A stretch of DNA of 24,432 nt, from positions 1 through 24,432 of the IMG/VR virus record IMGVR_UViG_3300032182_000230. One strand, given 5' to 3'. The notes beneath the pieces were generated by a model. That model did not search any database. It worked only from the letters and a program-made list of their open reading frames with translations, and was not told the origin of the DNA. Of this stretch, positions 266 through 20,300 are shown one piece after another (positions within the stretch are counted from its first letter, which is position 1; each line of letters begins with the position of its first letter). The translations under genes and the position numbers were made by a program. Origin of the DNA: a virus.

Positions 266-292
266 CCTAGGGGTAGGCATCGCCCCCCTAGG
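266..292. other. Strong hairpin between small genes
   Basis: CCTAGGGG (266-273) pairs exactly with CCCCTAGG (285-292). Inside it GGC (276-278) pairs with GCC (282-284), leaving an ATC loop and a two-base TA bulge. The eleven base pairs are mostly G-C. It lies 8 bases after the stop of the 69-residue gene and so sits where a terminator would. No T-run follows, so it is not a classical intrinsic terminator. It could be an RNA processing or stability element, or a weak terminator. Confidence 0.6.
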
Positions 293-301
293 GTCTACAA
301 T
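274..301 (+). promoter_or_regulatory. Candidate host sigma-70-type promoter
   Basis: A -10 box TACAAT (296-301) has a partial -35 match TAGGCA (274-279, four of six consensus bases) at 16-base spacing. The expected start near 308 would give a leader of about 20 bases before the NYETW gene at 330. The -35 lies in the loop and inner stem of the hairpin at 266-292. Host-type promoters usually drive early genes in this phage group, so these small genes may be early. The -35 is weak. Confidence 0.35.
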
Positions 302-329: not shown

Positions 330-578
330 ATGAACGGTTGGGCAAACTACGAGACCTGGAACGCTGCTCTCTGGATCGGCAACGATGAGTTTCTCTACAA
401 CACAGCAAAGGCATGTGTGACATACCGCGAGGGACTGGAGACCCCATGGGATAAGTTCGTGCGGTGCATGTGTGAGGGGCAGATTGGTCGTATGCTCTGC
501 AAGACAGGCGACGGCGTGGCATGGGATGACCCTGCCATCGATGCAGACGAGATGAACGAAATGCTGTGGGATCTCTGA
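330..578 (+). CDS. NYETW-type small phage protein, 82 aa
   Basis: This is a small acidic protein with an N-terminal block NYETWNAALWIGNDEFLYN (about residues 6-24). That block is characteristic of a widespread family of short uncharacterised phage and mobile-element proteins (DUF7249-like, from memory). The middle has an amphipathic part with two Cys (FVRCMCEG), and the C-terminal tail DDPAIDADEMNEMLWDL is acidic. There is no membrane segment. The function of the family is unknown to me. Its TGA overlaps the ATG of the HicA-like gene (578) by one base, so the two are translationally coupled and probably made together. By position it could act as partner of the HicA-like protein, but that is only inference. 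Confidence 0.75.
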   Translation: MNGWANYETWNAALWIGNDEFLYNTAKACVTYREGLETPWDKFVRCMCEGQIGRMLCKTGDGVAWDDPAIDADEMNEMLWDL

Positions 579-748
579 TGACAGACAAGCAACTTAAGCG
601 CCTCGCCCGTGTGCATGGGTGGGTTGAGCATCGCAAGGGTAGCAGGCATGAGATCTGGAGGCGTGGCGACAGTGAACAGGTCGCCATCCCATACAGACCA
701 AAGCAGCACACCGCCCGCCTGATCGCACGGCAACTCACAGCAGCATAG
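578..748 (+). CDS. HicA-like RNA-binding/toxin-fold protein, 56 aa
   Basis: The protein matches the HicA mRNA-interferase layout: an N-terminal helix (MTDKQLKRLARVHGW), the core KGSRHEIW (about residues 21-28) carrying the His expected to be catalytic in HicA toxins, a strand ending in VAIPY, and a C-terminal helix TARLIARQL. HicA proteins are short (about 55-80 residues) dsRBD-fold ribonucleases normally inhibited by HicB. No HicB-like gene is next to it; downstream is a terminator. The ATG at 578 overlaps the previous stop and is preferred over an upstream in-frame GTG at 566, because it removes only four residues and gives the usual coupled arrangement. It may be an orphan toxin, an RNA-binding relative, or half of an unrecognised pair with the NYETW protein. 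Confidence 0.65.
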   Translation: MTDKQLKRLARVHGWVEHRKGSRHEIWRRGDSEQVAIPYRPKQHTARLIARQLTAA

Positions 749-751
749 CAC

Positions 752-790
752 ACCCCCGCCCCCTGACAGTATGTTGGGGGGTTTGTTTGT
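752..790 (+). terminator. Terminator after HicA-like gene
   Basis: CCCCC (759-763), or the alternative ACCCCC (752-757), can pair with the G run at 776-781. A loop containing TGACAGTATGTT lies between, and the T-rich tail TTTGTTTGT (782-790) follows. It comes directly after the HicA-like stop and closes the GC-rich block of small genes. The T tract is interrupted by G, so efficiency is uncertain. Confidence 0.6.
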
Positions 791-920
791 ACTAAGGGGT
801 CGCCAAGCGAAAATCGAAGGGTCCCTCTAACCTACAAAAGTATCCAGACGACCGATAAATATTATTGAAAATGGTTTTTTGAAAAACCTCGGAAATAAAA
901 AAATTCCCCCAGAAAAAATC
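791..920. other. Gene-free boundary with promoter and hairpin
   Basis: Together with the terminator this is the longest gene-free stretch in the window. The first 60 bases show nothing recognisable. The second half has the late-type motif at 854-861, a small hairpin GGTTTT-TTGA-AAAACC (873-888), and an A-rich stretch up to the start at 921. An in-frame TTG at 879 could extend the next gene by 14 residues, but it lies inside the hairpin and lacks a Shine-Dalgarno. Base composition changes here from GC-rich to AT-rich. Confidence 0.5.
854..861 (+). promoter_or_regulatory. T4-late-type promoter motif GATAAATA
   Basis: GATAAATA differs from the T4 late consensus TATAAATA by one base and stands alone without a -35 box, as late promoters of gp55-type sigma factors do. 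Transcription would start around 867-870, about 50 bases before the ATG at 921. It sits at the boundary between the GC-rich small-gene block and the structural cluster. Confidence 0.6.
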
Positions 921-1166
921 ATGGAAAAACCCGATTTCAAAGACTTTACAGGTATCTTAGAAAACTTTGATGCATTTTGTGATGAGTTTGAAAGTCGCGC
1001 CGCGAACGCATTCCTAAGAGGAGATCAGAATGATGGAAGAGTTACAGAAGCAGCAGCAAACATTGGAGACAGCACTCCTGAAGTTGTCAGAGAGGTTGCA
1101 GAGCCTGGACCAGCGGATATCAGCCCTGGAGAGACCACAATTGATGTACAGGCGACCTCACAGTAA
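921..1166 (+). CDS. Small hypothetical protein, 81 aa, overlapping next gene
   Basis: I do not recognise this protein. The first 37 or so residues are convincing coding sequence: an acidic amphipathic start (MEKPDFKDFTGILENFDAF) followed by CDEFESRAANAFLRGDQ. From about residue 37 onward, where the next gene's frame begins at 1030, this frame turns into a low-complexity Ala/Glu/Pro/Thr tail that looks like out-of-frame translation. The ATG at 921 is preferred to the TTG at 879. No clear Shine-Dalgarno is seen. Either two genes genuinely overlap by 137 bases, or the real product is the N-terminal part joined to the next frame by a +1 shift near 1024-1030. The late promoter at 854 should drive it. 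Confidence 0.5.
   Translation: MEKPDFKDFTGILENFDAFCDEFESRAANAFLRGDQNDGRVTEAAANIGDSTPEVVREVAEPGPADISPGETTIDVQATSQ
1018..1023 (+). promoter_or_regulatory. Strong Shine-Dalgarno inside preceding gene
   Basis: GAGGAG sits six bases before the tandem ATG ATG at 1030-1035. It is the best ribosome-binding site on the left side of the window. It argues that the coiled-coil ORF starts independently even though it lies within the reading frame of the 921 ORF. Confidence 0.7.
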
Positions 1167-2521: not shown

Positions 2522-4314
2522 TGCCATATACACAAGTTGCTAACTTAGACTTTGAAGATATCAAAGCGCAGCTCAAGGACTACTTGAGATCACAGTCAGA
2601 TTTTACCGACTATGACTTTGAGGGATCGGCATTATCCACTCTCATCGACACACTTGCCTATAACACCTACTATACGGCGTTTAACACCAATATGGTAGTC
2701 AATGAACTATTCATTGATTCAGCGACCTTGAGGGACAATGTAGTAGCGATTGCGAAGCAATTAGGATACAGACCCAAGAGTGCTACGTCCCCAACTGCTT
2801 ATATTTCTTTTACAGCAACATATCAGAACGCTACAACTGATACTGAGTTGCTTTTAAAGAAAGGAACAGGTTTTATTGCTTCATATGATAATGTCATTTA
2901 TCAGTATGTTGTTGTGGATGATGCCAAAGCACAAGTATCAAATGGCGTTGCAACATTTACAGATGTTCCACTTAGAGAAGGAACACTATTAACAAACACA
3001 TTTACTGTCAATACGGCACTCAAGTCACAAAGGTTTATTCTTGACAACTCCAACATTGACACAAATACCATTAGGGTGAAAGTATTTCCCACTGGAGGAA
3101 GCTTTAGTGAGATCTATCAAGTTGCTGATAATATCATTGGTATTGATGGAACATCCAAAGTTTTCTTTTTAGATGAGATTGAAGATGAGAGATATGAGAT
3201 TTTACTTGGAGATGGAGTTCTAGGAAAGAAAATTGAAAATGGTTCTCGTGTTGAAGTTTCTTATATCACGACTGCAGGACCAGAAAGCAATGGTGTAAAG
3301 ACATTCGTATTCTCAGGTGTCCTTGAAAACCCAAATGGTGTGACACCAAACGTTTCTGTTTCCATCACTTCCACTACTGCTGCAGCAGGTGGAGAGGAAA
3401 TTGAGACCACTCAGAAGATCAAGTATACCGCTCCTAAGGCATATGGCACACAGGACCGCGCTGTAACCGCCCAGGACTACGAAGCAATCGTTCGTAGGGT
3501 ATATCCTGCCACCAGCGACATTATCATCTTTGGAGGCGAAGATCAGGACCCACCACAGTATGGTAAAGTATTCATTTCACTAAAACCAAAAGATGCAAAT
3601 TATTTGACATCTTTAAGCAAGAATGAAATTGTTACAGAACTTGAGAAGTATACTGTAGCATCGGTTGAACCAGTTCTTATTGATCCATCAATTCTATTTG
3701 TAGAATTGACAAGTAAAATTTATTATGATCGCTCTAAGACTGATGAAACCCCTGCTCAAATTAGAGATAAGGTCATTACATCTCTTCAGTCTTATCTTGA
3801 TACTAGTGATACTGAGAAGTTCAATGGTAAGTTTAGATACAGTAAAGCAGTTGGTGTAATTGATGATGCCGATAAGGTAATCAATTCGAATTTAACTTCT
3901 GTAACAATGAGGAAGGATTTCTATCCACAACTTAACTCAACTTTCTATTATGAGATTTGTTTCCAGAACGCTTTTGACAAGGATTGTGATGATCCTATTC
4001 TTTCTACAACTGGATTTAGAGTAACTGAGTATCCCAATTTTGATGTCTATCTTGAAGATAGGGATGGCAAAATTGTCCTATATAGACTAGATAGCGTAAC
4101 TGGTGAAAAAGTTGTCCTCGACAGCGAAGTTGGCGATATTGATTATGTGAAAGGTGAATTAAAAATGTATGCTCTTACTATCATTAAGGGCAGTTTCTTT
4201 GACAACCGCATCTCTGTAAGAGTAAAACCACTTTCTAATGATATCAAGGCACTCCGTGAGGTTTATCTTGATGTTGACGTTGCTAATTCCTCGTTCACTG
4301 CATACAAAGAGTAA
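2521..4314 (+). CDS. 6: Baseplate wedge subunit gp6 (baseplate J family)
   Basis: gp6 dimers form the inner ring of the baseplate and join with gp7 and gp25. The 597 residues compare with about 660 in T4. The N-terminal part has a typical helical region (FEDIKAQLKDYLRSQSDFTD and TLIDTLAYNTYYTAFNTNM). It is followed by AKQLGYRPKSATSP (about residues 77-91), a baseplate-J hallmark. The conserved core AVTAQDYEAIVRRVYPAT with GGEDQDPPQYGKVFISLKP (about 315-357) is intact. The C-terminal half is beta-rich and less conserved. The DNA around 3390-3560, which encodes this core, and the first 300 bases are visibly more GC-rich than the rest of the gene. It is coupled to gp25 by a one-base overlap; the giant gene follows after four bases. 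Confidence 0.93.
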   Translation: MPYTQVANLDFEDIKAQLKDYLRSQSDFTDYDFEGSALSTLIDTLAYNTYYTAFNTNMVVNELFIDSATLRDNVVAIAKQLGYRPKSATSPTAYISFTATYQNATTDTELLLKKGTGFIASYDNVIYQYVVVDDAKAQVSNGVATFTDVPLREGTLLTNTFTVNTALKSQRFILDNSNIDTNTIRVKVFPTGGSFSEIYQVADNIIGIDGTSKVFFLDEIEDERYEILLGDGVLGKKIENGSRVEVSYITTAGPESNGVKTFVFSGVLENPNGVTPNVSVSITSTTAAAGGEEIETTQKIKYTAPKAYGTQDRAVTAQDYEAIVRRVYPATSDIIIFGGEDQDPPQYGKVFISLKPKDANYLTSLSKNEIVTELEKYTVASVEPVLIDPSILFVELTSKIYYDRSKTDETPAQIRDKVITSLQSYLDTSDTEKFNGKFRYSKAVGVIDDADKVINSNLTSVTMRKDFYPQLNSTFYYEICFQNAFDKDCDDPILSTTGFRVTEYPNFDVYLEDRDGKIVLYRLDSVTGEKVVLDSEVGDIDYVKGELKMYALTIIKGSFFDNRISVRVKPLSNDIKALREVYLDVDVANSSFTAYKE

Positions 4315-4318
4315 GTAA

Positions 4319-7300
4319 ATGCCTGCTGTAAAGACTAAGAGAATTTCCACTCTGATCGAAACGCAGCTTCCTCAATTCATTAGTACAGAGTATGAACTCT
4401 TCAGTAAGTTCATGCAAAAGTATTATGAAGCGCAGGAAGTGCAAGGTGGCACATTGGATGTTATTAATAACCTCCAAAAATATGCAGACATCGACTTCTA
4501 TGAAAAGAACATCTTAAAGCAGAATGATGTTCTTGCTTCTACTATTACAGATAGTGACACTACAATTGTCTTACAAGATGCACAATCATTCCCAAAGAAG
4601 AATGGTTATGTAAGAATTGATGACGAGATCATTTTTTACGCCACAAGAACAGACACCGAACTAAGAGAGTGTTCCAGAGGTGTTAGTGGCAATTCATCTC
4701 TTGGAGATCTATACGAAAGTAGCACATTTACTAGCACAGAAGCAGCACCACACAATTCTGGACAGAAAGTATACAACGTAAGTAATCTCTTCTTATATGC
4801 TTTTGTAAAGAACTTTGAGAAGCAATATCTAGGTTCTTTCCCAGAAAAATATCTAAGAGGAGAAGTTGATAAGAGAACTCTTATCAAAAATATTCAAAAA
4901 TTTTATAAGTCAAAGGGAACAACTAGTTCCATTAAATTTATCTTCAATTCTATCGTTGCAGAAGATGTAAACGATAAACCAGAAGTATACAAACCAAAAG
5001 ATTTTACATACAAATCTTCCAATGCAGATTGGATAAACGTCTATGCATTGAAGTGTAAGGTTGTTTCTGGTAATGTAAATTCTTTAGTAGGAAAGCAAAT
5101 TGTTCAGGAAGCAACTAATGAGTATGGATTTGCTTCTGCAATTGTAGACAATCTTTCTGCTGAAGGAACAAGAGATGGTGAAAGTATCGTTAATATTGTT
5201 GTTGCTCCCGAAACAGTCAATGGCGAATTTGCAGTTTCTACCAAAACTTCATTAACAAAATCACTTTCTGGTGTAGCAACCGCTGGAAATCGTATTGATG
5301 TATTTTCTACTCTAGGATGGGATAAAACTGGTTCTGTCTTAATTGGCAATGAAACGATTACATTCGAAGAAAAGACTGCTACCCAATTCATTATTAAAAG
5401 CAGACAAGCATCTGGGGCAGTTGTTCATCCTGCAGATACTTCTGTATATAAACCAGTAACACTTACTGGATCTGGAGTTACACTACTAATTCTTGGAGTT
5501 GTATACAACGTTGCTCCAACTGATGCTCAACCACATGCAAGTGTTGGTGATAAAATTCAAGTTTCAGAACCTGGATTTTTATCTGTAGATCCAAAGATTG
5601 TAAAAACTGGAACCAATCAAACACGTTGGATTTTAGGTTCTGGAGCGTCTCCAGTTGTTCCAACTTTGCCATCGGTTCAATCTTCTCTGTTAGAAGTTCC
5701 AACAGATGTTACTACTATTCACGAAGATGATCAGTATTATTATATCACATCATCCAGTTTTCCATCTCATAAAATTTTAGATGGTTCTACTGTTAGTCAA
5801 AAAGTTTTAGATCAAAAGATCCTAAGACTAATTAGAAAAAGAGCAACGGCAACTACTGAAAGATATCAGACACCTAAAGCAGATACTGGTATTCTTTTGA
5901 ACGGTGTAAGAACTTACAGTTACAGAGATACTGAAAGCGTACGCTTTGGTAGACTAGAAGAAATTAAGATTGATTTGCAAGGAAGAGGTTATGCAAAACC
6001 TCCATTTGTTCTGATTGATGAAGTTCCAAACAAAGCTAGAGCAGTTCTTGCTGGTCAGGTTGTTGAAAGTATTATTGTTGATACTGAGGACGTTTTTCCA
6101 AAAACACCAACTGTTACCATTACTTCTGGTAGAAGAGCAGAAGTTCGTGCCGTTGTTACTGGTGGTAAAGTAACAAGTTTGATCATTGATAATCCTGGTG
6201 AATATTACTCATCTCCTCCAATAGTAAGAATTAGAGACAATGCTGGTAGAGGAAGATTTGCTAGTTACAATGCAATTGTTGACGGAGACGGAAAACTAGT
6301 TGACTTTGAAAAAATTGATGAAGGAAACTTCTATAACCAAAATACGGTAATTGTTGATATTATTGCAGTTGGTGAAGGTGCTGTAGGAATTCCACTTCTA
6401 AAAGAATGGAACTTTAACAGATACGAAAAACTCAAATCGACACTTGACACAGAAAATGGTTATATTTTCCAAAACTATGATTCGACTTTAGAGTATGGAT
6501 ATGGATATCTTGCAAACCCAAAAGCGTTGCGTGTTGCGTTAAACGACAACTTAAATAACGCTGGGACAGAACCATCTACAATTGTTCACTCGCCAATCAT
6601 TGGATTTGCATATGATGGTAATCCGATTTATGGACCATTTGGACACCAGGACCCACTAAATCCACAGTCATCTATTGTTAGAATGACTTCTGGTTATTCT
6701 CTCAAGAATTCTCGCTCAGGTGGTCCTTCAGTAAATCAGTATACCTTGGGATCATTCATTGATGACTATCAATATGTTCATCGTAGTGGTTCTCTAGATG
6801 AAAATAACGGAAGATTTTGTGTCACTCCAGAATTTCCAAATGGAACTTATGCATATTTTGTTACTATTGACAGCAGTCAAGTACCACAGTTTCCATATAT
6901 TTTAGGTGCTAACTTCTATTCTCTACCAGTTGATAGTAACTACAATTCAGACATTAATCAGAATGACATTCCAAAGAATGCCAAGAGATATAATGTTGCT
7001 GGTATGCCAAGAAATGGCGAGGGTCTGATTGCATCCATCTCCGATGTTTCTTCAGGAACAATTGATAACATTGATATTGTAAGATCATCCAGTAATTTCT
7101 CAGTCAACTCTAAAGTTTATTTTAATAACCAGGGAACTGAAGGATCTGAAGTAGAAGCAAATGTTTCTTCTGTTAAAGGCAAAGGTGTATCTTATCTACA
7201 AAGTAAAGAAAGTAAAGTAGTAAAATTAACTACTGTTCAGACTGCATTTTTGTTTGCTGATGACACATTAAGACAACCATCTTCAAATGCATCTGGAACT

Positions 7301-10300
7301 ATTGTTGGAACAGTTTCCAGTGATAATGTAATTGTTCTGAAAAATGTTGTAGGAACATTTGACAATACAGGAACTTTCTCTGCCGACATTAAAACCTTCT
7401 CTATATTAGTAGATCAAAATAGTTCTTACACAGAAGGTGCAATCTTAAGTCTAACCAATGGTGTCGATGCTCCTATCGCAACAGGTGAAGTATTAGAAGG
7501 AACAAATCGCCAAAACGTAGTTAAAATTAAAGTTCTAACTGGAACATGGATTGTAGATGAAGATTATTTCATTCAATCTAGTAATCTATTCAATACAATT
7601 GGTTCAAGAATTGTAACTCTAACCTCATTGAGTGATGGTCTTGAACCATTTGAAGTTAATCAGAGTGTTGCTCTGATCGAAACTGATGCAAATCATGGTC
7701 TTGGTATTGGTGATAGTGTCAATATCGATATCAATCCCGATGACACAACTAAGACTAAAACATATTATCTAAGAAAAAGAATTTACCAAGAGGTAAATCT
7801 AATTCCACCAAGTAATACATCAACTATTAGTTTTACTGGTATTGGTAGATTTGAAATTCTAAATGGTGGTGCTGATTACACTCCTGGAACTTACACTGAT
7901 GTAAAACTTACTGGTGGTTCAGGAAAAGATGCTACTGCATCATTTACAGTTTCTTCTGCTGGTATTGTTTCCAATTTCCAATTGCAAAATGCTGGAAGTG
8001 GATATGCTAGGGGAGATTATATTTCTGTAGCAGATGAAAGTCTCGTTAGATCTAGTGCTTCACTGTCAACTGCAAGATTTACGCTTTATGTTGGACATGT
8101 TGGAGTTCCCGCAGGATCCACAAAAGTTTCACTAAAATCTTCTATTGGGTTTGCTGTTGGTGACTTGATCACTATTGGAGAAGAAATCTGCAAAATTAAC
8201 AGTATTACTGATAATGATTTGTTTGTATCTAGAGGACAAGAGAATACGGCAGATGTAGATCACTTTGATGGTCAAGAAGTTTCTTTATACAAACCAACAT
8301 ATAATTTTGATGAAAACTTCCAAATTTTCAGTGGATCCAATTCTGGATACATTCAAAGTTATGATAGAGATACTCAAAAGATCGTAGTAGTATATGATTA
8401 TGCAACAGAACTATCAACAGCAAATCTGGTAACGTTAAGTTCCAGTTTCTTTGAAAGTAGCAGTCCTAGCAGACTAGTCTCAGTTAAATCTGCTGGAGAC
8501 TTGGTGTACAAATTTGAATTTTCTGAGGATAACACATCATTCACACCAAATCCAAATATTAATATTCAAGAGTTCTATAAGTATAAGTTTGATACGTCTC
8601 ACTCATCTCTTACTGGGACTTATTTTGATCTTTCTCCAAGTAGAAATTATAATATAGAAACACTAGAAAAAACATCTTCAACAATCCTTCCTGGAAATGC
8701 AGGTTCTTTCACTGATGTAAAATTTGGTTTTGGAGCAAGACTTTCTGGTAACACCTACCAGACTAAAGTTGGAACAAACTTTTCTAATTTCTACTACTTT
8801 GATAGAAAAGGCATTGTCAATTCCGAAGGATCTTATTTAAAGATCGTTCAAGATCCTCTACAAGGCGTAAGAACTGTAAACTATGTTACACCCAACCGTT
8901 TTGTTTATGATATTAGCAGCGAGCCTCTTTGGGATGGTTCTGGATCCATTTCTTATACTACTACTGGTCAGTTCGCTATCGGTGAAATTAATTCCTTTGC
9001 AATCACGAACCTTGGATTAAACTATAAAAAACTCCCTGTAATCAGTGGTGTAGATCCAAATCAAAACTTTAGAGCATCTGCTACAGTATTATTTGATATT
9101 ACTACTAATACAATAACTGGCATAAACCTTCAAAATAAAGGTTCAAATTATGTAAATCCAAAAGTTGTTATTACTAATGGAGATGGTGTTGATGCTAAAT
9201 TTAATATCGTTGTTAGAAATGGAGAAATTTTCTCTATCACTGTAGATGATCCTGGAATTGGATATACTTTTGCTCCCGAAATTATTATTGTTGAAGGTGA
9301 TGTTGAAGCATATACAGAAAGTGTAACTGTAGGAGTTCCTAGAAGTGTTTCTATTATTAACAATGGAGGATCCTTCCATTTAGATAAAACAGTAGCGTCT
9401 ACTTTTAGTTCTAAATCTGTTCTTGTTCTTTCTAGTTTTAATGGAGATTTTAGAAAGGGAGAAACCGTTGTCCAGAGAATTGGAGGCACCGAGGTTGCTC
9501 GTGCAAAAGTTTCTGAGTGGAGATTTGGTTCAAATCTACTGAAAGTAGAAAATATTTTGGGAACATTTAGAGAAAATGTATCTGTTCAATCTATAGTTTC
9601 TCCAGTATCAGGAATTGTAAAATCAATTTTTGTAAGCACCTTTGCAGAAGAAGTAACAGGTTTTTATGACAACTTAGGTTTTTACAAATCTGATAGAGGA
9701 AGAATTGGCAACTCTAATCAAAAAATTGTCGATAGTTTCTTCTATCAAGACTATTCTTATGTTGTCAAGTCTAAGACACCTGTTGACCAGTGGCGTGAAC
9801 TAATTAAATCCACTACACACCCTGCTGGATTTAAACTATTTGGACAAGTTGATGTAGAAGCTACTGCAAGCACTGAGATGCCAGCAGAACTACCAAAGGC
9901 ATCACATTTTAGCATCATCCAACTATCTGATAAGGTAACAATTGAAAGTGAATCTACAAGAAGAACTGTAACTCAAATTCTTCAAAAAGTAGAAAATCAA
10001 AGAATTCGAAAAGGACAAGGCTCTGCTGCTACCAGTGAGTTCTTATTTAATGAGATGCGTGCATTTGAAGTAAAACTTGCTAAACCATTTGATGGCGTCA
10101 ATGGTGTTGATGCTGGTAAGATTGCTGGTTCTGTTGCAAGATTGGCGGAGTACAACGATACTCAAACCTTTGAACTTATTAACGATCTTGGACAAGTAGA
10201 AACAAAGTCTGTTCCTTCGGGTCATAATATTGTATTCTACAAAGCTAGTATAGTTGAAGCAGTAACAGGAACAGGATATTCTGGAACAGAAGAACAAGTT

Positions 10301-13300
10301 ACTGTAGACTTGAGCACCAGTTTAGAAAACTGGGATTTAGCAAATAACACAAGTGGTTACTCTTCTGGTACTGCAGGTAGTCCATTATCTTACAGATGTA
10401 TTAGATCTGCTTTGAGTGGTAATGGGACAAATTATTCAGGAACAGATCTCCCTAACGGTGTTGGGACTATTATATACAACAATGGATCTATTTGGCCTCA
10501 AAATACAACTGGAGAATTCCTCTATAATAATAGTGACAATAGTGTCTTTGGTTGCGATTTCGCTTATCTATTTGAGCATCCAACATTTGGAATATGTTTT
10601 GCTATTGAATATAAAAATGATGGTTACTACGATCACCCAGAAGTTTTCCCACGAGGATGGAAATCTGGAGATGTATTTAGATTATATGTAAATGGCACTT
10701 ATAGTGCAGGCACAGGACCGCAGCCAGATAGATTTGGACATATTGATTTTAAAGTAGATGCAATTACGCTTGAATCTGGTGGAACTGCTACTTATACAGG
10801 ACAAGCTAACAATATCGGAACAAAAGAGTTCCAACTCTTAGATGAAAATAATAAACCATTTACGCCATATGATGCCAAAAACCTAATTGTTACATTAGAC
10901 GGTGTGTTACAAGAACCTGGAGTTTCTTACACTGTTCAAGATGATAAGATTATTTTTAGTGAAGCTCCACTAGGACCTTCTTCCAAGCAGACTGGTGAAT
11001 CACCAACTGACGTTACCCTGTATAATAGAACAGGTCCGAATGCTTTTGTTGGCACCACTTTCTATGCCAAGTATGTTGCATTTAAAGATAATCAATATAA
11101 TAACGAATACTTCAAGAAAATCAGAAACATCTTCCAGCGTAATGGTAGATGGTTAGATGCTGCAAATCAAGTTGAGAGAAACCGTCAGTTTATTGTAGAA
11201 GAGACTATTGGATATGCAAAAACAACATATCCAACGTTAGATTGGAGCACAAAGCAAGATGACTATGAAGTAAATATTGGTTCTATCCTCGATGCATATG
11301 AGCACGATTTGAGATTTGGTGGAAACATCAAAACTATAGACTACACTTCTATTTTTAACACAGATAGCGATTATCTATACATCCAAAACAATAGATCTCA
11401 ATCTACTGGCATCTTTAAGTATGCTGCAAGATTAGCAAAACTTGCTATTAGAAATTGGGACTACACAGATGCTGGTGTAGTATACATTCAAGGTTCCAGA
11501 ACCATGACTGTTACCGATACTGACAATCTCGCTATCGGTATGTTTGTAAGTTCTGGTAGAGCATTCCCATCTGGAACTTATATCGTTTCTATTGATAGTG
11601 ATACACAAGTTACTTTAAGTCGTGCTGCACTAGCAAACTCTTCTGGTGGTGGTGGAGTTCCTGCAGGAACCACTTTACTAAGTGGCACAGCAACTGATGG
11701 CACTCTTCCTACTAGCACTGGTGCTGTTAAACCACCAAATGAATTTAACGTTCCACCTGGAGTTACTGTTACCGCTGGACTTTCATTTGCTGGAACTGAT
11801 CAGGCAACATTCTCTTGGAGTGGTATTAACAATGGCACTTTTTATGATGCTGCTAATCTAATCGCAGCAAATAAAAAGTATATTCAAGAAGAAACTCTTG
11901 GATGGGCACAAGCAACCTATCCCAGCATTAGTTGGGGATCTAAAGGTGGTAAGTGTCAAAGGGATTTAGGTTTCTTGGTTGATGCATATGTTTATCACCT
12001 TCGCTTTGGTGGAAATGAAAAGGTTGTTGAATTTGGACAATTATATTATGTAAAAGCAAAATATCCAGAATCAGAAAATTTACTCTTCATCAATAAAGAA
12101 TTAGATGAAAGTCTTGCTGCATTTGAATATGCAAAAGACTTGATGGTTCAAGCAATGAGAAATACTCTTGGTGCTGGAACTTATACTTCTATTTCTCCAG
12201 TTGTTGACAATAGCATTTTGGTTGACAGTGTAACTCCATATTGTGCTGAAGTAGAAAGTGCCTTAGATACTTACGATAGTATTGTCAATACAATTTTGTC
12301 TGAAGGAAAAGGATTAGTTACAAAAACAAACCAAAATCCAAACAAACCAGGCAATTGGTCTAGATCTTTGACATATTCAAATTATAATATTATTGGTGAT
12401 CCATTACTACTAGCACAAGAGTGCAATGATGTAATTTCTTCTGTTGATTCATTAACTTCCAATATTGATGATATTCTACAGCAAGAAGCAGTTACTAGAA
12501 CACTTCCAGATTATATTGACGGTGAAACAAAAGAGTTTGAATTGTATTGGGAGGATGGATCAGAAGCTATCTTGGAAGAAGATGAAGATCTTTTCCTAAC
12601 AATTAATGCTGTTTTACAGAGACCAAAGTATACTGAAAACTTCCCACTGTTTGATGCATACTTTATTGATAGAACTGTAATTCCCAACGTTATTAAATTT
12701 GATGTTGCTCCTATTTGGGATCAAGATTTCGGTGCAAAAACTATTGGTGAACCAACTGCTGTAGAAAAAATTGTTGGTGTTGGTGTTGGTAACTACAAAC
12801 GTCTTACAATTGATTATGATTTGGTTGATGGTATTAAAAATGGTCCATTCCTAATCTTGGATGTTGAAGACAACGCTGTACAAAACATAGAATCTGAAGA
12901 TAATCTCTATGTCTTCTTGGATGGTGTTCTACAACGCAAAGGATACTCATACACAATTTCTGGTCCAAACATCTACTTCAATGTTCCTATTCAGAAGGAA
13001 ATGAAGATTGATATGAGATATCTCTATGGTAGAGATGTTGGTCAGGTTTTGAACATCTACGATTTTGCACCAGATACTTACTATTCTAGAGGAAGACTAA
13101 CAATTTCTGGTCTAACATCTACTATCATTAATGAGTTTGGAACTTATGCTTGGATGGGAGACAAGATTGGATCTCCAATTCATTTATGGCAACAGAGAGT
13201 AGATGGAACTTTTAATGTTATTGGTGAAGTTTCAAACTTCTTTAATAATGCTGGAACTGTTGAATTTGATGTCAAATCTCAAAATGGATACATTATAGAC

Positions 13301-15391
13301 GGATTAGATTTTGTGTTTGCAGTTAAGGGTCGTTACGATATTCAGTATTCTATCAGTGATGGAGATATCACATCATCAACATTGTCTTTAAATGTAGATG
13401 ATCAAGGAAGAAAACTTCTGAAAGATGATAGTGCTCTCTGGAAAGGAACTGTTATTGGTAAATCTTACAGAAATCCATTTGTATATCTTGCAAACGGTGA
13501 TAAAATTCGAGTTGAGGGAGAAGAAGGATTTAGATCTGTAAAACAAGTTCCACCAACTGCAACCAGCAAAGATGGAAGAAATGATAATCCTCTATCCAAT
13601 GAAATTTATTCTTCCGTATCTGTTGAAACATATACTGGAGTAACAAGAGGTGAAGGTCTCTCTATCGTTCCTATCATGGAAAAAGATAGCAATGGAGATC
13701 TTACTGGAAAAATCGAAAGATTAGAGTGGAACCAACGTAGTTATGATCCACTAACACAACCAACAGCATATCAATATTATACTCCACCAATCATTAAATT
13801 TATTCCTAAAACTGGAAAAGGTGGCGGTGCTAGAGCAAATGTTCTAGTAAGCAAAGGTCAGGTAATTAGTGTTGATTTGATTGATGGTGGTTCTGGTTAT
13901 GAAGAAGCACCTACAGCAGTTGTTTCTAGAAGATTTGACATTCTTTCGGAAAGAGACATTGGTGTATCAATTATCAATATTGGTGTTAACCCATATGTTG
14001 AAACTGCTGGTGTAACTGTAACTTCTACTATTGATCTTATCAGTTTCCCAGAACCACTAGGATTTACAACTACTGCTGTTATTGCAGATAGTCCCACACG
14101 GGTAGATTGGGAACTAGAAGAAGATATTCAGTTAGTAGAAGAGGCTGGAACTAATCTTTCTGCTGGAATAACTGGACCATTCGTAAGATACAGTGCTCCA
14201 TTCATTACCAATGTAGAAAAAATTGATGTCTTCAAAGATGTTTGTGAATATGTTTCTATAGTTTCTACTCGTGTTGAAGACATTACATCGGCTTCTATTG
14301 TATATGTTAACGAGTTGGATCGACATGAACATATACAGATTACTACCACTCTACAAAATGTCATCCTTAATGATGCCATTGATAATGTCAACTTCTTTGA
14401 AGTTGGTGCTTATCTACAGGTTGATCTTGATGCTGCAGAAAATATTATTTACATTGCTGACACATCTAAGTTTAAGTCATCTGGTTATTTGTTAATTGGT
14501 GACGAAGTTGTATTCTACTATCGTAAACTTGGTGATCGTTTCATCAAAGTACAGAGAGGAAAACAAAACACAACTCCACAAGATTGGTCTGCTGGAACTT
14601 TCTTGCGTCAAATCCCAGATCCTGTATCTGTAGCATTCGGTGGTGTAGTCACTGTTGAAAGTGGAAGTGAAGTTAGTATGGTCTCTGCATCTGCAGCAGC
14701 AGGTGGATTTGAAAGAAAAGTTCAAAGACAAATCTCTGCTCCAGATGAATTCTCTATTGCTAGAAATCAAGTAGAGATTGTTGTTAATCCACCAGAAACT
14801 GGATTTGTTGATAGATATATTGAAGAAGTATTCTTCACTGATGAAATTCCTTTGAGAAATGGATCTACAGTTCAATTAGCAACTAAAGATGTTACTCAAA
14901 GAAATGGAAATGTAGTTCTAATCAACAACTTTACGTTTGTTGTTGGACAAGTTGAGTATAGAGGAGATTATGTTCTAGGAAAACTTGGACCTTCTATTGG
15001 TAATTTTGGTGATGTATTCGTGGATAGTGGATTTATGAGTGTTTCTGGAATTGCGATTGGTGATATGGATATCTACTATCCCGCACTAACAATTGGAGAT
15101 TTCACTGAAAGACATAGTTCTAGTTACATGAAGTCTGGTAGAGTTTTTAGAATGGTTCGCCCATCTATTAATAATCCAGTTACTCATAGTGCATTTACTG
15201 GAACCATTCCATTCATCTTGAATGTCAACAATACTACATATTTCCCCGATAGTGGACATCTGTTTACTGCAAACGGAACTGTTATCTCTTATACAAGTAA
15301 GTCAAATACAACCTTCAATAGTTGCACAGTGGTATCTGGACCAAATACCATTACAAGCGGCGATGAAGTGATTCCTTTTGCAATTAACTAA
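4319..15391 (+). CDS. Giant gp7-like baseplate protein, YHYH domain, 3690 aa
   Basis: The position after gp6 and the N-terminus match the large gp7-like 'baseplate wedge initiator' or VrlC-like structural proteins of T4-like cyanophages. T4 gp7 has about 1030 residues, so this one is over three times longer. Residues 1-60 are helical; about 160-210 carry the recurring FEKQYLGSFPEKYLRG and KFYKSKGTTSSIKFIF motifs. Residues about 755-855 form a YHYH-type domain (GFAYDGNPIYGPFG, then NNGRFCVTPEFPNGTYAYF). Repeated modules follow: (a) 'I.IG.E.I......RG' at about 81-124, 322-379, 1265-1331 and 3376-3431; (b) 'G.GY..PP.V' at about 552-640, 1178-1237, 1559-1660 and 3168-3205; (c) 'L.GVLQ....Y' at about 2188, 2757 and 2862; (d) a duplicated helical module at about 2260-2382 and 2502-2621. 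It probably spans from baseplate core to periphery. Identity as gp7 is inferred; that it is one continuous structural gene is seen. Confidence 0.8.
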   Translation: MPAVKTKRISTLIETQLPQFISTEYELFSKFMQKYYEAQEVQGGTLDVINNLQKYADIDFYEKNILKQNDVLASTITDSDTTIVLQDAQSFPKKNGYVRIDDEIIFYATRTDTELRECSRGVSGNSSLGDLYESSTFTSTEAAPHNSGQKVYNVSNLFLYAFVKNFEKQYLGSFPEKYLRGEVDKRTLIKNIQKFYKSKGTTSSIKFIFNSIVAEDVNDKPEVYKPKDFTYKSSNADWINVYALKCKVVSGNVNSLVGKQIVQEATNEYGFASAIVDNLSAEGTRDGESIVNIVVAPETVNGEFAVSTKTSLTKSLSGVATAGNRIDVFSTLGWDKTGSVLIGNETITFEEKTATQFIIKSRQASGAVVHPADTSVYKPVTLTGSGVTLLILGVVYNVAPTDAQPHASVGDKIQVSEPGFLSVDPKIVKTGTNQTRWILGSGASPVVPTLPSVQSSLLEVPTDVTTIHEDDQYYYITSSSFPSHKILDGSTVSQKVLDQKILRLIRKRATATTERYQTPKADTGILLNGVRTYSYRDTESVRFGRLEEIKIDLQGRGYAKPPFVLIDEVPNKARAVLAGQVVESIIVDTEDVFPKTPTVTITSGRRAEVRAVVTGGKVTSLIIDNPGEYYSSPPIVRIRDNAGRGRFASYNAIVDGDGKLVDFEKIDEGNFYNQNTVIVDIIAVGEGAVGIPLLKEWNFNRYEKLKSTLDTENGYIFQNYDSTLEYGYGYLANPKALRVALNDNLNNAGTEPSTIVHSPIIGFAYDGNPIYGPFGHQDPLNPQSSIVRMTSGYSLKNSRSGGPSVNQYTLGSFIDDYQYVHRSGSLDENNGRFCVTPEFPNGTYAYFVTIDSSQVPQFPYILGANFYSLPVDSNYNSDINQNDIPKNAKRYNVAGMPRNGEGLIASISDVSSGTIDNIDIVRSSSNFSVNSKVYFNNQGTEGSEVEANVSSVKGKGVSYLQSKESKVVKLTTVQTAFLFADDTLRQPSSNASGTIVGTVSSDNVIVLKNVVGTFDNTGTFSADIKTFSILVDQNSSYTEGAILSLTNGVDAPIATGEVLEGTNRQNVVKIKVLTGTWIVDEDYFIQSSNLFNTIGSRIVTLTSLSDGLEPFEVNQSVALIETDANHGLGIGDSVNIDINPDDTTKTKTYYLRKRIYQEVNLIPPSNTSTISFTGIGRFEILNGGADYTPGTYTDVKLTGGSGKDATASFTVSSAGIVSNFQLQNAGSGYARGDYISVADESLVRSSASLSTARFTLYVGHVGVPAGSTKVSLKSSIGFAVGDLITIGEEICKINSITDNDLFVSRGQENTADVDHFDGQEVSLYKPTYNFDENFQIFSGSNSGYIQSYDRDTQKIVVVYDYATELSTANLVTLSSSFFESSSPSRLVSVKSAGDLVYKFEFSEDNTSFTPNPNINIQEFYKYKFDTSHSSLTGTYFDLSPSRNYNIETLEKTSSTILPGNAGSFTDVKFGFGARLSGNTYQTKVGTNFSNFYYFDRKGIVNSEGSYLKIVQDPLQGVRTVNYVTPNRFVYDISSEPLWDGSGSISYTTTGQFAIGEINSFAITNLGLNYKKLPVISGVDPNQNFRASATVLFDITTNTITGINLQNKGSNYVNPKVVITNGDGVDAKFNIVVRNGEIFSITVDDPGIGYTFAPEIIIVEGDVEAYTESVTVGVPRSVSIINNGGSFHLDKTVASTFSSKSVLVLSSFNGDFRKGETVVQRIGGTEVARAKVSEWRFGSNLLKVENILGTFRENVSVQSIVSPVSGIVKSIFVSTFAEEVTGFYDNLGFYKSDRGRIGNSNQKIVDSFFYQDYSYVVKSKTPVDQWRELIKSTTHPAGFKLFGQVDVEATASTEMPAELPKASHFSIIQLSDKVTIESESTRRTVTQILQKVENQRIRKGQGSAATSEFLFNEMRAFEVKLAKPFDGVNGVDAGKIAGSVARLAEYNDTQTFELINDLGQVETKSVPSGHNIVFYKASIVEAVTGTGYSGTEEQVTVDLSTSLENWDLANNTSGYSSGTAGSPLSYRCIRSALSGNGTNYSGTDLPNGVGTIIYNNGSIWPQNTTGEFLYNNSDNSVFGCDFAYLFEHPTFGICFAIEYKNDGYYDHPEVFPRGWKSGDVFRLYVNGTYSAGTGPQPDRFGHIDFKVDAITLESGGTATYTGQANNIGTKEFQLLDENNKPFTPYDAKNLIVTLDGVLQEPGVSYTVQDDKIIFSEAPLGPSSKQTGESPTDVTLYNRTGPNAFVGTTFYAKYVAFKDNQYNNEYFKKIRNIFQRNGRWLDAANQVERNRQFIVEETIGYAKTTYPTLDWSTKQDDYEVNIGSILDAYEHDLRFGGNIKTIDYTSIFNTDSDYLYIQNNRSQSTGIFKYAARLAKLAIRNWDYTDAGVVYIQGSRTMTVTDTDNLAIGMFVSSGRAFPSGTYIVSIDSDTQVTLSRAALANSSGGGGVPAGTTLLSGTATDGTLPTSTGAVKPPNEFNVPPGVTVTAGLSFAGTDQATFSWSGINNGTFYDAANLIAANKKYIQEETLGWAQATYPSISWGSKGGKCQRDLGFLVDAYVYHLRFGGNEKVVEFGQLYYVKAKYPESENLLFINKELDESLAAFEYAKDLMVQAMRNTLGAGTYTSISPVVDNSILVDSVTPYCAEVESALDTYDSIVNTILSEGKGLVTKTNQNPNKPGNWSRSLTYSNYNIIGDPLLLAQECNDVISSVDSLTSNIDDILQQEAVTRTLPDYIDGETKEFELYWEDGSEAILEEDEDLFLTINAVLQRPKYTENFPLFDAYFIDRTVIPNVIKFDVAPIWDQDFGAKTIGEPTAVEKIVGVGVGNYKRLTIDYDLVDGIKNGPFLILDVEDNAVQNIESEDNLYVFLDGVLQRKGYSYTISGPNIYFNVPIQKEMKIDMRYLYGRDVGQVLNIYDFAPDTYYSRGRLTISGLTSTIINEFGTYAWMGDKIGSPIHLWQQRVDGTFNVIGEVSNFFNNAGTVEFDVKSQNGYIIDGLDFVFAVKGRYDIQYSISDGDITSSTLSLNVDDQGRKLLKDDSALWKGTVIGKSYRNPFVYLANGDKIRVEGEEGFRSVKQVPPTATSKDGRNDNPLSNEIYSSVSVETYTGVTRGEGLSIVPIMEKDSNGDLTGKIERLEWNQRSYDPLTQPTAYQYYTPPIIKFIPKTGKGGGARANVLVSKGQVISVDLIDGGSGYEEAPTAVVSRRFDILSERDIGVSIINIGVNPYVETAGVTVTSTIDLISFPEPLGFTTTAVIADSPTRVDWELEEDIQLVEEAGTNLSAGITGPFVRYSAPFITNVEKIDVFKDVCEYVSIVSTRVEDITSASIVYVNELDRHEHIQITTTLQNVILNDAIDNVNFFEVGAYLQVDLDAAENIIYIADTSKFKSSGYLLIGDEVVFYYRKLGDRFIKVQRGKQNTTPQDWSAGTFLRQIPDPVSVAFGGVVTVESGSEVSMVSASAAAGGFERKVQRQISAPDEFSIARNQVEIVVNPPETGFVDRYIEEVFFTDEIPLRNGSTVQLATKDVTQRNGNVVLINNFTFVVGQVEYRGDYVLGKLGPSIGNFGDVFVDSGFMSVSGIAIGDMDIYYPALTIGDFTERHSSSYMKSGRVFRMVRPSINNPVTHSAFTGTIPFILNVNNTTYFPDSGHLFTANGTVISYTSKSNTTFNSCTVVSGPNTITSGDEVIPFAIN
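11096..11465 (+). repeat. Helical module, copy 1 (in giant gene)
   Basis: Protein-level repeat with the landmarks DAANQVERNRQFIVEETIGY, AKTTYPTLDW, ILDAYEHDLRFGGN and, near the end, YAARLAKLAIRN. It pairs with 11822-12180. Similarity is clear in the protein and weak in DNA, so the duplication is old. Modules with 'DAANLI..N..FI.EE' and 'DA..YDLR.GGN' recur in cyanophage structural proteins, as I recall. Confidence 0.75.
11822..12180 (+). repeat. Helical module, copy 2 (in giant gene)
   Basis: Second copy of the module at 11096-11465, with matching landmarks DAANLIAANKKYIQEETLGW, AQATYPSISW, LVDAYVYHLRFGGN and YAKDLMVQAMRN. About 355 bases of Ser/Gly/Thr-rich beta-type sequence separate the copies. 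Confidence 0.75.
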
Positions 15392-17357: not shown

Positions 17358-20300
17358 ATGCCACAAAAGACTAACCTAAATGTAAATCCTTATTATGAGG
17401 ACTTTGACGCGAATAAGAATTTTTATAAAATTCTGTTCCGTCCTGGTTACTCTATTCAAGGTAGAGAATTAACGCAAGTTCAATCAATTCTACAGAACCA
17501 AATTGAGAGTTTTGGTAGATATGCGTTTAAGCAGGGAGAATTAGTAATCCCTGGAGAGGTTGGTCTCAATACAAAATTAGACTACGTTAAACTGTCTTCT
17601 GTTTCCGAGGTTGCTATTTCGGAAGGAAACGACATCGTATACAAAAAGTATGATATCACTCAATTAGTTGATCAGCAACTAAGAGGATTGACATCTGGTG
17701 TTACAGCAACCGTTTTATCGGCAAAGTTGGCAACAGAATCTACAGCAGACACTGTTTTTGTAAGTTACATCAATAGTGGTAACTCTAATGAAGAACAAAC
17801 ATTCCGCCAAGGTGAAACATTAGAGGTTGTTGATGGTGTTAATACTCCGTTGTTAGTTGTTGGAACAGATGGTAGTGTTCTACCAACTAGTATTCAAGTA
17901 ACTAATCCTGACACTGGAGAAGTAACTTCTCTAGAAAGTCCCGCTATGGGATTTGGTTCTGCTGTCAAAGTTCAAGAAGGCATCTATTTTGTCAATGGAT
18001 ATTTTGTTCGCAACGAAGAGCAACTTCTTGTCATCGATGAGTATTATGATAAACCATCTGCTAAAGTAGGATTTACGATTAAAGAAGAGATTGTAACACC
18101 AGAAGCAGATGCATCTTTATATGACAATGCAATTGGATCATCTAACTACACAGCACCTGGAGCTCATAGACTAAAAATTGATTTAGAGATTAAGAAATTT
18201 GCTCTGGATGCAATTACTGATAAAAACTTTATTCAACTTCTCACTGTCAAGAGAGGTATTGTACAAAGAAAAATCTCTTCAACCGATTTTAGTGTTCTAG
18301 AGCAAACTCTAGCGCGTAGAACTTTTGACGAAAGTGGTGATTACGTTGTTGATAATTTTGATATTGATATGCGTGAGTGGGCGCAGAAAGACAGCAACAA
18401 AGGTATCTACGGCGTTGATGAGTTTGGTCTTTACAACGGATACACTGCTGGTGAAGCTTCTAGAAAAATGGTTGCTAGCATTGGTCCTGGCAAAGCATAT
18501 ATTAAAGGATATGAAATTGTCAATAAAGAAACAAAGTATCTTGAAATTAACAAAGCAAGAGAAAGTCTTACCAGTGACAATGTAACACTAAAAACTAAAG
18601 GTCTTCCAACTTTATCAGTTACCAATGTATATGGAAGTGTTCCTTTGAACAAAGAGGGATCTGATCTTACTGCGTATCCCGATATTTTCTTGTATGGAAC
18701 TTTTACTGATGGTTCAATCGGTGTAAATGGAACCGAAGCGACTACAGACCATAGACAAACTATTTCTAGAAGAGGTCTAACATTTACTGCTAATGATGCA
18801 ATTAGAACTCTGACTATTGATGTAAATGGTCTTAATGGTCAACCAACTCTTGGGTCTTTGACCGACAGCACTTTCCAGACAGATTATAAAACTATTTACT
18901 ATATTAAATCTAGAAGTGGTGATGGAACTGCTACAGAAATTGGAACTGTTACTACTCTAGCATTCGCTACTATTAACAGACCTGGAATTGATAGCAATGA
19001 AAATAAGCAGTTCCTAGAACTTACTGTTTTTGGAAGAAAGGATGAGATCGAAAATCTCATGCTTGAATATGACGAGGGAGATTCCGAAAAGAAGAGAAAA
19101 CTATTCCTTTCCACTGGAGATGCTCAAGCTAATACAAATTATTGGGGTGAAGTAGTAGATTATAGAAATTCAATTACTCCAGTTATTGGTAAAGTAAAAC
19201 CAAGCAACTTCTTCCTTAAGCAAAGAGGTGCTGGTTTCAATGGAGATTCTGATGTAATCCTTTCAAAGGGTCGTCTTGCTGGAGGAACTCCAAGTTACAA
19301 TAGTGTATTTGGTTTCTCTTACTTTGATCCACAATTCTTTACTAGAATTTTGTTGGAGACAGTTCCTGCTGGTGGATTTGATGAGGGTAAGTATGTATTT
19401 GGTTTAGACAGTGGTGCCTATGGAGTTGTAGAAGGACCTGCTTCTGGCGTCTACTCCACAGATAGAATTTTGTTTATCAAAACAATTTCAGGAAACTTCA
19501 AATCTGGTGAAACAATCAGAGACGAAGATTCAAACACCGTAAAAATTGCAAAAGATAATACAATTTCTCACTTTGTCACAATTGACAGAGGATCGGGATA
19601 TTCTTCTGGAGCAGGGGTAAAATTAAATGGAGTTGATTACGATTCTTCCAAGATTGAAGCAAAAATTCTTGGTGGAAAAATTTACAAAGTTGTTATTAAC
19701 AACTTAGCAGCTCTTAGAAACTTAGAATTTACACAACCACCAGAAATTGTTATCACTGGATCTTCAGATAGTTCTGGTGCTGCAGCAGTTCGTGCTGTTT
19801 TAGTAAGAAACTCAGTAACAACATTCAATCCACAAAATATCAAGTCAATTGGTGGTAACTATGGTTCTGGTGGCACTAATAAGTTTAGTGCCGATTTGGT
19901 TGTAGACGACCAGACACTAGGTAGTATCACTGCAGTAACAGACTATACTTTCTTTGGTAAGAAAGGCACAATGTTTGTAGAATCTACAAGTTTTAGTGCC
20001 GATGCATCTAGCATTTTGCAACAGGGAGATCTAATTCAATTCTCTGATCAAGATAATAATCTTGTTCGTGCTATTGTTCAATATGCCACACAAGCAGGCG
20101 GTGCTGCAAAATCTAGAATTTATCTAGACACTGCACTGCCTGGAGATGTTACTAATACAAGTATTGTTCGTTTGAGACCAAGACCTCAAAATACTAATGG
20201 CGGAACCCTACTTTTCCCAACAGGAAGTAAGCAAGTAGAACAAATTTCTGCTGGTGGTGACGACACTAAAATTAAGTACTATTTCCGAAGAGATTTTGTA

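What the first reader, a model, noticed from the sequence alone, without database searches (positions are those of the whole stretch)
330..748. Orphan HicA-like gene coupled to an NYETW protein rather than HicB
The HicA-like protein keeps the GS-x-H core with the expected catalytic His but has no HicB neighbour. Instead its start overlaps the stop of a small acidic protein of unknown function in a two-gene unit with its own promoter-like and terminator-like signals. The NYETW protein could be a new type of antitoxin, or the HicA fold may have been recruited as an RNA-targeting phage effector.
Basis: partly seen in the sequence, partly recalled or inferred. Interest (0 to 1): 0.55.

Follow-up and report, generated by a model that had tools for sequence, protein, structure and literature searches.

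The report
HicB-free HicA-like gene in cyanophage
A virus of marine cyanobacteria carries a small gene that looks like a working bacterial RNA-cutting toxin but without its usual antidote gene; relatives suggest it is a swappable takeover gene, and that the gene beside it is probably not its antidote.

Summary
Window 330-578 encodes DUF7249 (the NYETW protein, acidic). Window 578-748 encodes a 56-aa HicA-family protein whose start codon overlaps the DUF7249 stop by one base. The window is a fragment of a T4-like marine cyanophage. The HicA histidine is invariant in 82 of 82 distinct family proteins and the gene is under purifying selection. No HicB was detected in 12 phage records carrying HicA-like genes.

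Coupling to DUF7249 is real but not obligatory. The two genes overlap or lie within 60 nt in 22 of 56 distinct sequences of the window's HicA subfamily, and once occur as an inverted two-gene block. Each also occurs alone: an identical DUF7249 protein without HicA, and HicA without DUF7249 on a 12.7-kb contig. In 35 gp25-anchored loci the two genes assort independently (p=0.72). DUF7249 is predicted all-alpha, unlike HicB, and no complex was confidently predicted.

Best reading: a HicB-free, HicA-fold RNA-targeting gene, probably early expressed, carried as a modular cassette. T4 RegB is the closest functional analogue, and it was not found in these cyanophages. The antitoxin reading is unlikely but not excluded. 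RNase activity and toxicity are untested.

The parts
274..301 (+). promoter-like site of the unit (TAGGCA, 16 nt, TACAAT at 296-301, about 30 nt before the DUF7249 ATG)
   Evidence: consensus scan at chance level; TAYAAT found only at -35..-28 before DUF7249 in 25 of 98 distinct relatives, 2.5 expected from shuffles
330..578 (+). DUF7249 (PF23907, phrog_871), the NYETW protein: 82 aa, pI 4.1, predicted five-helix fold
578..748 (+). HicA-like protein, 56 aa (in-frame alternative start GTG 566), pI 11.5, predicted catalytic His24 and invariant Arg19; start overlaps the DUF7249 stop by 1 nt (TGATG)
   Evidence: PF07927 8.7e-6 and phrog_353 4.8e-9; profile match to solved HicA 5yrz_B 6.2e-5; His invariant in 49 of 49 A-type and 33 of 33 B-type distinct proteins; dN/dS 0.09 against S-B43
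758..782 (+). terminator-like hairpin with T-rich tail after HicA
   Evidence: same hairpin in L001 and S-B43, and a different hairpin at the end of the HicA-less site L022
854..861 (+). GATAAATA, resembling a T4-type late promoter (motif recalled); start of the late/baseplate side, which marks the far edge of the cassette
   Evidence: invariant in the five aligned loci; gp25 follows at 2129

Best explanation
The HicA-like gene is a HicB-free HicA-fold protein with an intact predicted active site, in a lytic-type T4-like cyanophage. It is carried as one interchangeable cassette in a variable small-gene island upstream of the gp25/gp6 baseplate genes. It is most likely made early from the host-type promoter in front of DUF7249 and acts on RNA (cleaving or tightly binding mRNA) to help shift gene expression to the phage, a job like that of T4 RegB. 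A lytic phage that kills its host may need no antitoxin. DUF7249 is an independent small cassette protein; here the two share a transcript and are probably translationally coupled. Shown here: gene content, fold membership, conserved His, purifying selection, modular gain and loss. Inferred: early timing, shared transcript, RNase activity, target and RegB-like role.
For: HicA fold: the HicA part of the model is alpha-beta-beta-beta-alpha and its four best PDB hits are HicA or HicA-like chains (5yrz_B, two chains of 6g26, 1whz). His invariant in 82 of 82 distinct proteins. dN/dS 0.09 between the window and S-B43. PF15919 HicB in 0 of 12 HicA-like phage records and 0 of 9 contigs. Cassette behaviour: flush empty site in L022 with the same DUF7249 protein, HicA-only L393, independence in 35 gp25-anchored loci, and three HicA-like subfamilies in the same island. 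RegB precedent: early phage endoribonuclease with a RelE/YoeB-like fold (PMC3014915, passages); PF10715 found in T4 but in none of 9 HicA-like cyanophages.
Against: No RNase assay or expression timing is available. LeBron gp82, an orphan phage HicA, was not toxic on overexpression (PMC13148394, passage), so orphan HicA proteins may be inactive or binding-only. In one set of loci with full flanks the window's subfamily always had DUF7249 (9 of 9), and adjacent pairs co-diverge (rho 0.52), which hints at a functional link. The match to Pfam HicA is 0.8 bits under the curated cut-off.
Confidence: 0.58

Rival explanations
1. DUF7249 is a non-HicB antitoxin or chaperone of the adjacent HicA: an acidic all-alpha protein made first from the overlapping transcript binds the basic HicA and restrains it.
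For: Acidic-upstream, basic-downstream order and charge (pI 4.1 and 11.5), as in Adephagia gp90/gp91 (PMC11373665, passages). Overlapping starts in 10 of 56 distinct A-type sequences and a further 12 within 60 nt. Inverted two-gene block in L389/L390. A-type HicA with DUF7249 in 9 of 9 loci with full flanks. Co-divergence of adjacent pairs rho 0.52, p 0.001, against -0.09 for separated pairs.
Against: DUF7249 often stands alone, including an identical protein in L022. A-type HicA without DUF7249 in L393 and seven less resolved loci. B-type HicA-like proteins with the same His often lack DUF7249 (3 of 4; 6 of 12 records). No association in 35 gp25-anchored loci. Order flips and intervening genes are common. 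No confident placement in the read-through model, pTM 0.52.
Confidence: 0.13
2. The HicA fold has kept RNA binding but is used as anti-defence: it binds or sequesters RNA of a host toxin-antitoxin or other RNA-based defence, in the way T4-like TifA counters ToxIN.
For: Small basic RNA-binding-type fold in a hypervariable phage island of the sort that holds host-interaction genes. TifA precedent (PMC10853763, abstract in the search listing). Orphan LeBron gp82 not toxic.
Against: The putative catalytic His is invariant in 82 of 82 proteins, which pure binding would not obviously require. No defence-family match of note (one weak hit, E 0.006).
Confidence: 0.15
3. HicA is an addiction remnant: a former HicAB toxin that lost HicB and is decaying or neutral.
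For: HicB is absent and the gene is gained and lost between relatives.
Against: dN/dS 0.09 (window and S-B43) and mostly below 0.25 in other pairs, though pairs with L004 reach 0.35-0.38 and one (L004/L010) 0.82. Invariant His. Recurrent presence at the site in three subfamilies.
Confidence: 0.05
4. HicA is neutralised in trans by a HicB of the host or by an unrecognised phage antitoxin elsewhere.
For: Solo toxins controlled in trans are discussed in PMC2701414 (passages). Phage genomes hold many uncharacterised small ORFs.
Against: No HicB in 12 phage records with PF15919, nor in 4 of them with PF05534. Hosts were not searched.
Confidence: 0.09

Closest known systems
HicAB type II toxin-antitoxin systems (HicA, PF07927)
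   Same: HicA fold, G-x-x-H core with the catalytic His, small basic protein; acidic-upstream, basic-downstream gene order as in Adephagia gp90/gp91 (PMC11373665, passages)
   Different: No HicB; the upstream neighbour is DUF7249, predicted all-alpha and dispensable across loci
LeBron gp82 and other orphan phage HicA-like genes
   Same: Phage-encoded HicA-like protein without a nearby antitoxin (PMC13148394, passage)
   Different: Mycobacteriophage; gp82 was not toxic on overexpression; no DUF7249 neighbour was described in the passage
T4 RegB endoribonuclease (PF10715)
   Same: Early phage RNase with a toxin-like fold in a T4-type phage; the review discusses that it may need no antitoxin (PMC3014915, passages)
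   Different: Different fold (RelE/YoeB-like); not homologous; RegB was not found in these cyanophages
phrog_353 / phrog_2053 / phrog_18430 and DUF7249 (PF23907, phrog_871)
   Same: The window's proteins fall in phrog_353 ('toxin') and DUF7249
   Different: These are catalogue entries without tested function; their shared island and modular exchange are described here

Membership tests
HicA (PF07927) | sequence match to the family profile | tested here: inconclusive
   8.7e-6, 26.2 bits, under the 27-bit cut-off; subfamily members L134 and L060 pass with 33.7 and 33.1 bits; phrog_353 4.8e-9
HicA (PF07927) | dsRBD-like alpha-beta-beta-beta-alpha fold | tested here: met
   model of close relative L014, HicA part pLDDT about 74-90; best PDB hits are HicA chains 5yrz_B (TMt 0.77), 6g26_E (0.73) and 1whz (0.61), E 0.04-0.08; 1whz as HicA-like is recalled
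HicA (PF07927) | conserved catalytic His after the Gly | tested here: met
HicA (PF07927) | mRNA interferase activity | not testable with these tools
   no assay
HicAB type II TA system | adjacent HicB antitoxin | tested here: not met
   PF15919: 0 of 1 window record (18), 0 of 4 (19), 0 of 8 (46), 0 of 9 contigs (117); PF05534 0 of 4 (21); DUF7249 is predicted all-alpha (81)
HicAB type II TA system | toxin not found without its antitoxin (taking DUF7249 as the antitoxin) | tested here: not met
   L393; B-type loci
HicAB type II TA system | complex of the two proteins and neutralisation | tested here: inconclusive
   read-through model pTM 0.52, mean pLDDT 71.6, with the DUF7249 half poorly modelled
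DUF7249 (PF23907) | profile match over the curated cut-off | tested here: met
   129.4 bits, cut-off 27
T4 RegB (PF10715) | homology to RegB | tested here: not met
   the window HicA matches only PF07927 in Pfam; PF10715 in 0 of 9 HicA-like cyanophages, found in T4 at 1.1e-69

The most novel reading that the evidence does not exclude
In the overlapping DUF7249-HicA bicistrons, DUF7249 is a new class of all-alpha, non-HicB regulator that binds HicA and times its action during infection, so that the pair is a self-limiting phage-takeover module assembled from an RNase toxin and an unrelated partner. (PMC2701414, passages found HicA-HicB strictly as unique pairs in its 2009 prokaryote set.)
Probability: 0.12. 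Interest if true: 0.65.

Novelty: new variant of a known kind. Interest (0 to 1): 0.4.

Why it matters
If the protein cleaves RNA, lytic T4-like cyanophages use HicA RNases without an antitoxin, and several HicA subfamilies have been recruited at one genome site. That would give marine cyanophages a RegB-like step of host or early mRNA turnover that is not annotated today (two phages' records do not annotate the gene at all). It also gives a clean test of why a toxin fold can be carried without its antidote.

Tried and rejected
Rejected: DUF7249 as a disguised HicB. Its model (pLDDT 95) is five helices with no HicB-like sheet, no significant PDB match and no VIA match; in the viral library only one hit passes E 0.001, a cyanophage protein of 72% identity. 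Rejected: DUF7249 as a common plasmid gene (no tblastn match in plasmids). Rejected: a host gene as direct source; the genome-contig scan found no relative, but its single peptide pattern was narrow.

Led nowhere: NCBIfam and PADLOC; papers naming DUF7249 (0); papers on HicA and cyanophage (one search lists 9, of which I later read passages of one, PMC7863781: sponge viromes); one search lists that same paper. The first mixed alignment for a joint model (A7) was misaligned and not used; A8 replaced it. The S-PM2 ORFanage deletion (PMC4503421, passages) spans 5,799-15,339 and so does not remove the HicA-like gene at 24.8 kb.

Results against my reading, told in full: A-type HicA had DUF7249 in 9 of 9 fully flanked loci (before L393 was found); adjacent pairs co-diverge; L389/L390 carry the pair as an inverted block. 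Rows dropped: one search was given 59 of the 80 gp25 loci (most of those with short upstream sequence left out), used 41 with at least 2.5 kb upstream and dropped 6 duplicates by gp25 DNA. One search dropped loci with identical DUF7249 DNA (80 to 70, 80 to 75, 80 to 52); its samples S1 and S2 share contigs. Missing genes near contig ends may be truncation.

Full report
What is there. The window is the whole of a 24.4-kb virus record and is a fragment of a T4-like marine cyanophage: nucleotide matches of its first 1.8 kb are to Synechococcus phages, cyanophages and Prochlorococcus phages only (237 records), and gp25 lies at 2129-2521. ORF 330-578 is DUF7249. ORF 578-748 is a HicA-family protein, and its ATG overlaps the DUF7249 stop by one base. 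DUF7249 is acidic (pI 4.1) and HicA basic (pI 11.5). A promoter-like site and a terminator-like hairpin flank the unit. The consensus scan alone gives the promoters at chance level and the terminators little above it, but TAYAAT is positionally conserved at -35..-28 before DUF7249 in 25 of 98 distinct relatives, against 2.5 expected.

Is it a HicA? The profile of 22 sequences finds solved HicA 5yrz_B at 6.2e-5. A model of the close relative L014 gives alpha-beta-beta-beta-alpha for the HicA half, and the top PDB hits are HicA chains, at modest E-values of 0.04-0.2, the query being a two-domain chain. The putative catalytic His is invariant in 49 of 49 distinct proteins of the window's subfamily (A) and in 33 of 33 of a second subfamily (B). 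The preceding Ser is not invariant: Gly, Ala or absent in some. dN/dS is 0.09 against S-B43 and low in most other pairs; one pair is 0.82.

Is HicB missing? PF15919 was not found in the window record, in 12 phage records that carry HicA-like genes or in 9 further contigs. PF05534 was not found in 4. Controls rang in known genomes. Eleven of the 12 records are labelled complete genomes or genomic sequences and one (QB2) is a partial genome.

How often do the two genes go together? tblastn with the window HicA finds 7 cyanophage records (4 phages) and 16 weak Streptococcus phage records; DUF7249 is found in 225 records, 217 of them cyanophages; gp25 in 454 cyanophage records. Of 80 DUF7249-picked viral loci, 73 have at least 1 kb downstream and 33 of these have a HicA-like ORF within 1 kb, from three subfamilies. 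In a more distant DUF7249 set the figures are 0 of 45 downstream and 3 of 35 upstream. So HicA goes with this genome island rather than with DUF7249 in general.

Test without choosing on either gene. In gp25-anchored loci, of 35 distinct loci with at least 2.5 kb upstream, 14 have both genes, 9 only DUF7249, 6 only HicA-like and 6 neither (Fisher p=0.72; contig ends may hide some genes). By subfamily, A-type had DUF7249 in 9 of 9 fully flanked loci and B-type in 1 of 4. A later scan found L393, an A-type HicA with intact His and no DUF7249 on its whole 12.7-kb contig; L388, L392, L394, L395 and L352 also lack it but have little sequence upstream of HicA. Conversely L022 has the identical DUF7249 protein and a HicA-free site that aligns flush with the window's cassette. 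S-T4 has a HicA-like gene in the same island, beside a homologue of the same neighbour gene, without DUF7249.

Evidence for a link. In 56 distinct A-type sequences the arrangement is overlap in 10, 1-60 nt in 12, 61-1000 nt in 21, over 1000 nt in 1, HicA upstream in 4 and no DUF7249 found in 8; in 32 B-type sequences there is no overlap. In L389/L390 the pair, with overlapping start, lies inverted relative to gp25, and in L390 hairpins flank it. Adjacent pairs co-diverge (rho 0.52, p 0.001, n=18) and separated pairs do not (-0.09, n=25). Linked inheritance explains this as well as function does.

DUF7249. The model is confident (pLDDT 95, pTM 0.86), all-alpha, five helices, with no significant PDB match. 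It is not a HicB. The read-through model of DUF7249 plus HicA has pTM 0.52 and models the DUF7249 half poorly, so it neither supports nor excludes a complex.

Mechanism. The best-supported account is a HicB-free HicA-fold RNA effector in a modular small-gene island. T4 RegB is the precedent: an early phage endoribonuclease with a RelE/YoeB-like fold (PMC3014915, passages). RegB is found in T4 but in none of 9 HicA-like cyanophages. A caution is LeBron gp82, an orphan phage HicA that was not toxic (PMC13148394, passage), whereas Adephagia gp91, which has a HicB, is highly toxic (PMC11373665, passages). RNA cleavage, early timing and target are inferred.

Novelty. Both protein families and orphan phage HicA-like genes are already catalogued or described. 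I found no paper on this pair: DUF7249 returned 0 papers, HicA with cyanophage 9 papers (listing only, one of them later read in passages) and HicA with 'Synechococcus phage' 1 (passages). The library holds only open-licence papers. I call it a new variant of a known kind.

Noticed in passing
window 879-1166 and 1030-1260: Two overlapping ORFs in different frames (137 nt overlap) follow the unit; a motif pair for both, in different frames, was found in 18 of 80 DUF7249 loci, and overlapping genes lie in the corresponding stretch of S-PM2 and Syn1.
   Followed up: partly
window 4319-15391 and 17358-24431: Very long ORFs (3690 aa, and 2358 aa running off the end), probably structural proteins.
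   Followed up: no
L027, L037, L136, L141 and others: A second HicA-like subfamily (phrog_2053, SKTPSDN tail, T4-like GC 820 in S-PM2 and Syn1) with the same invariant His, currently labelled unknown function.
   Followed up: partly
L080 about 255 nt after DUF7249; L066, L069, L077: A third HicA-like subfamily (phrog_18430 'toxin') in the same island.
   Followed up: partly
L104 (S-RSM4) 3001-3168, L105 (S-WAM2) 2995-3162: The HicA gene is not annotated in these phage records.
   Followed up: no
S-T4 record 47-217 and 171616-171786: The same HicA region appears at both ends of the linear record, probably terminal redundancy left in the assembly.
   Followed up: no
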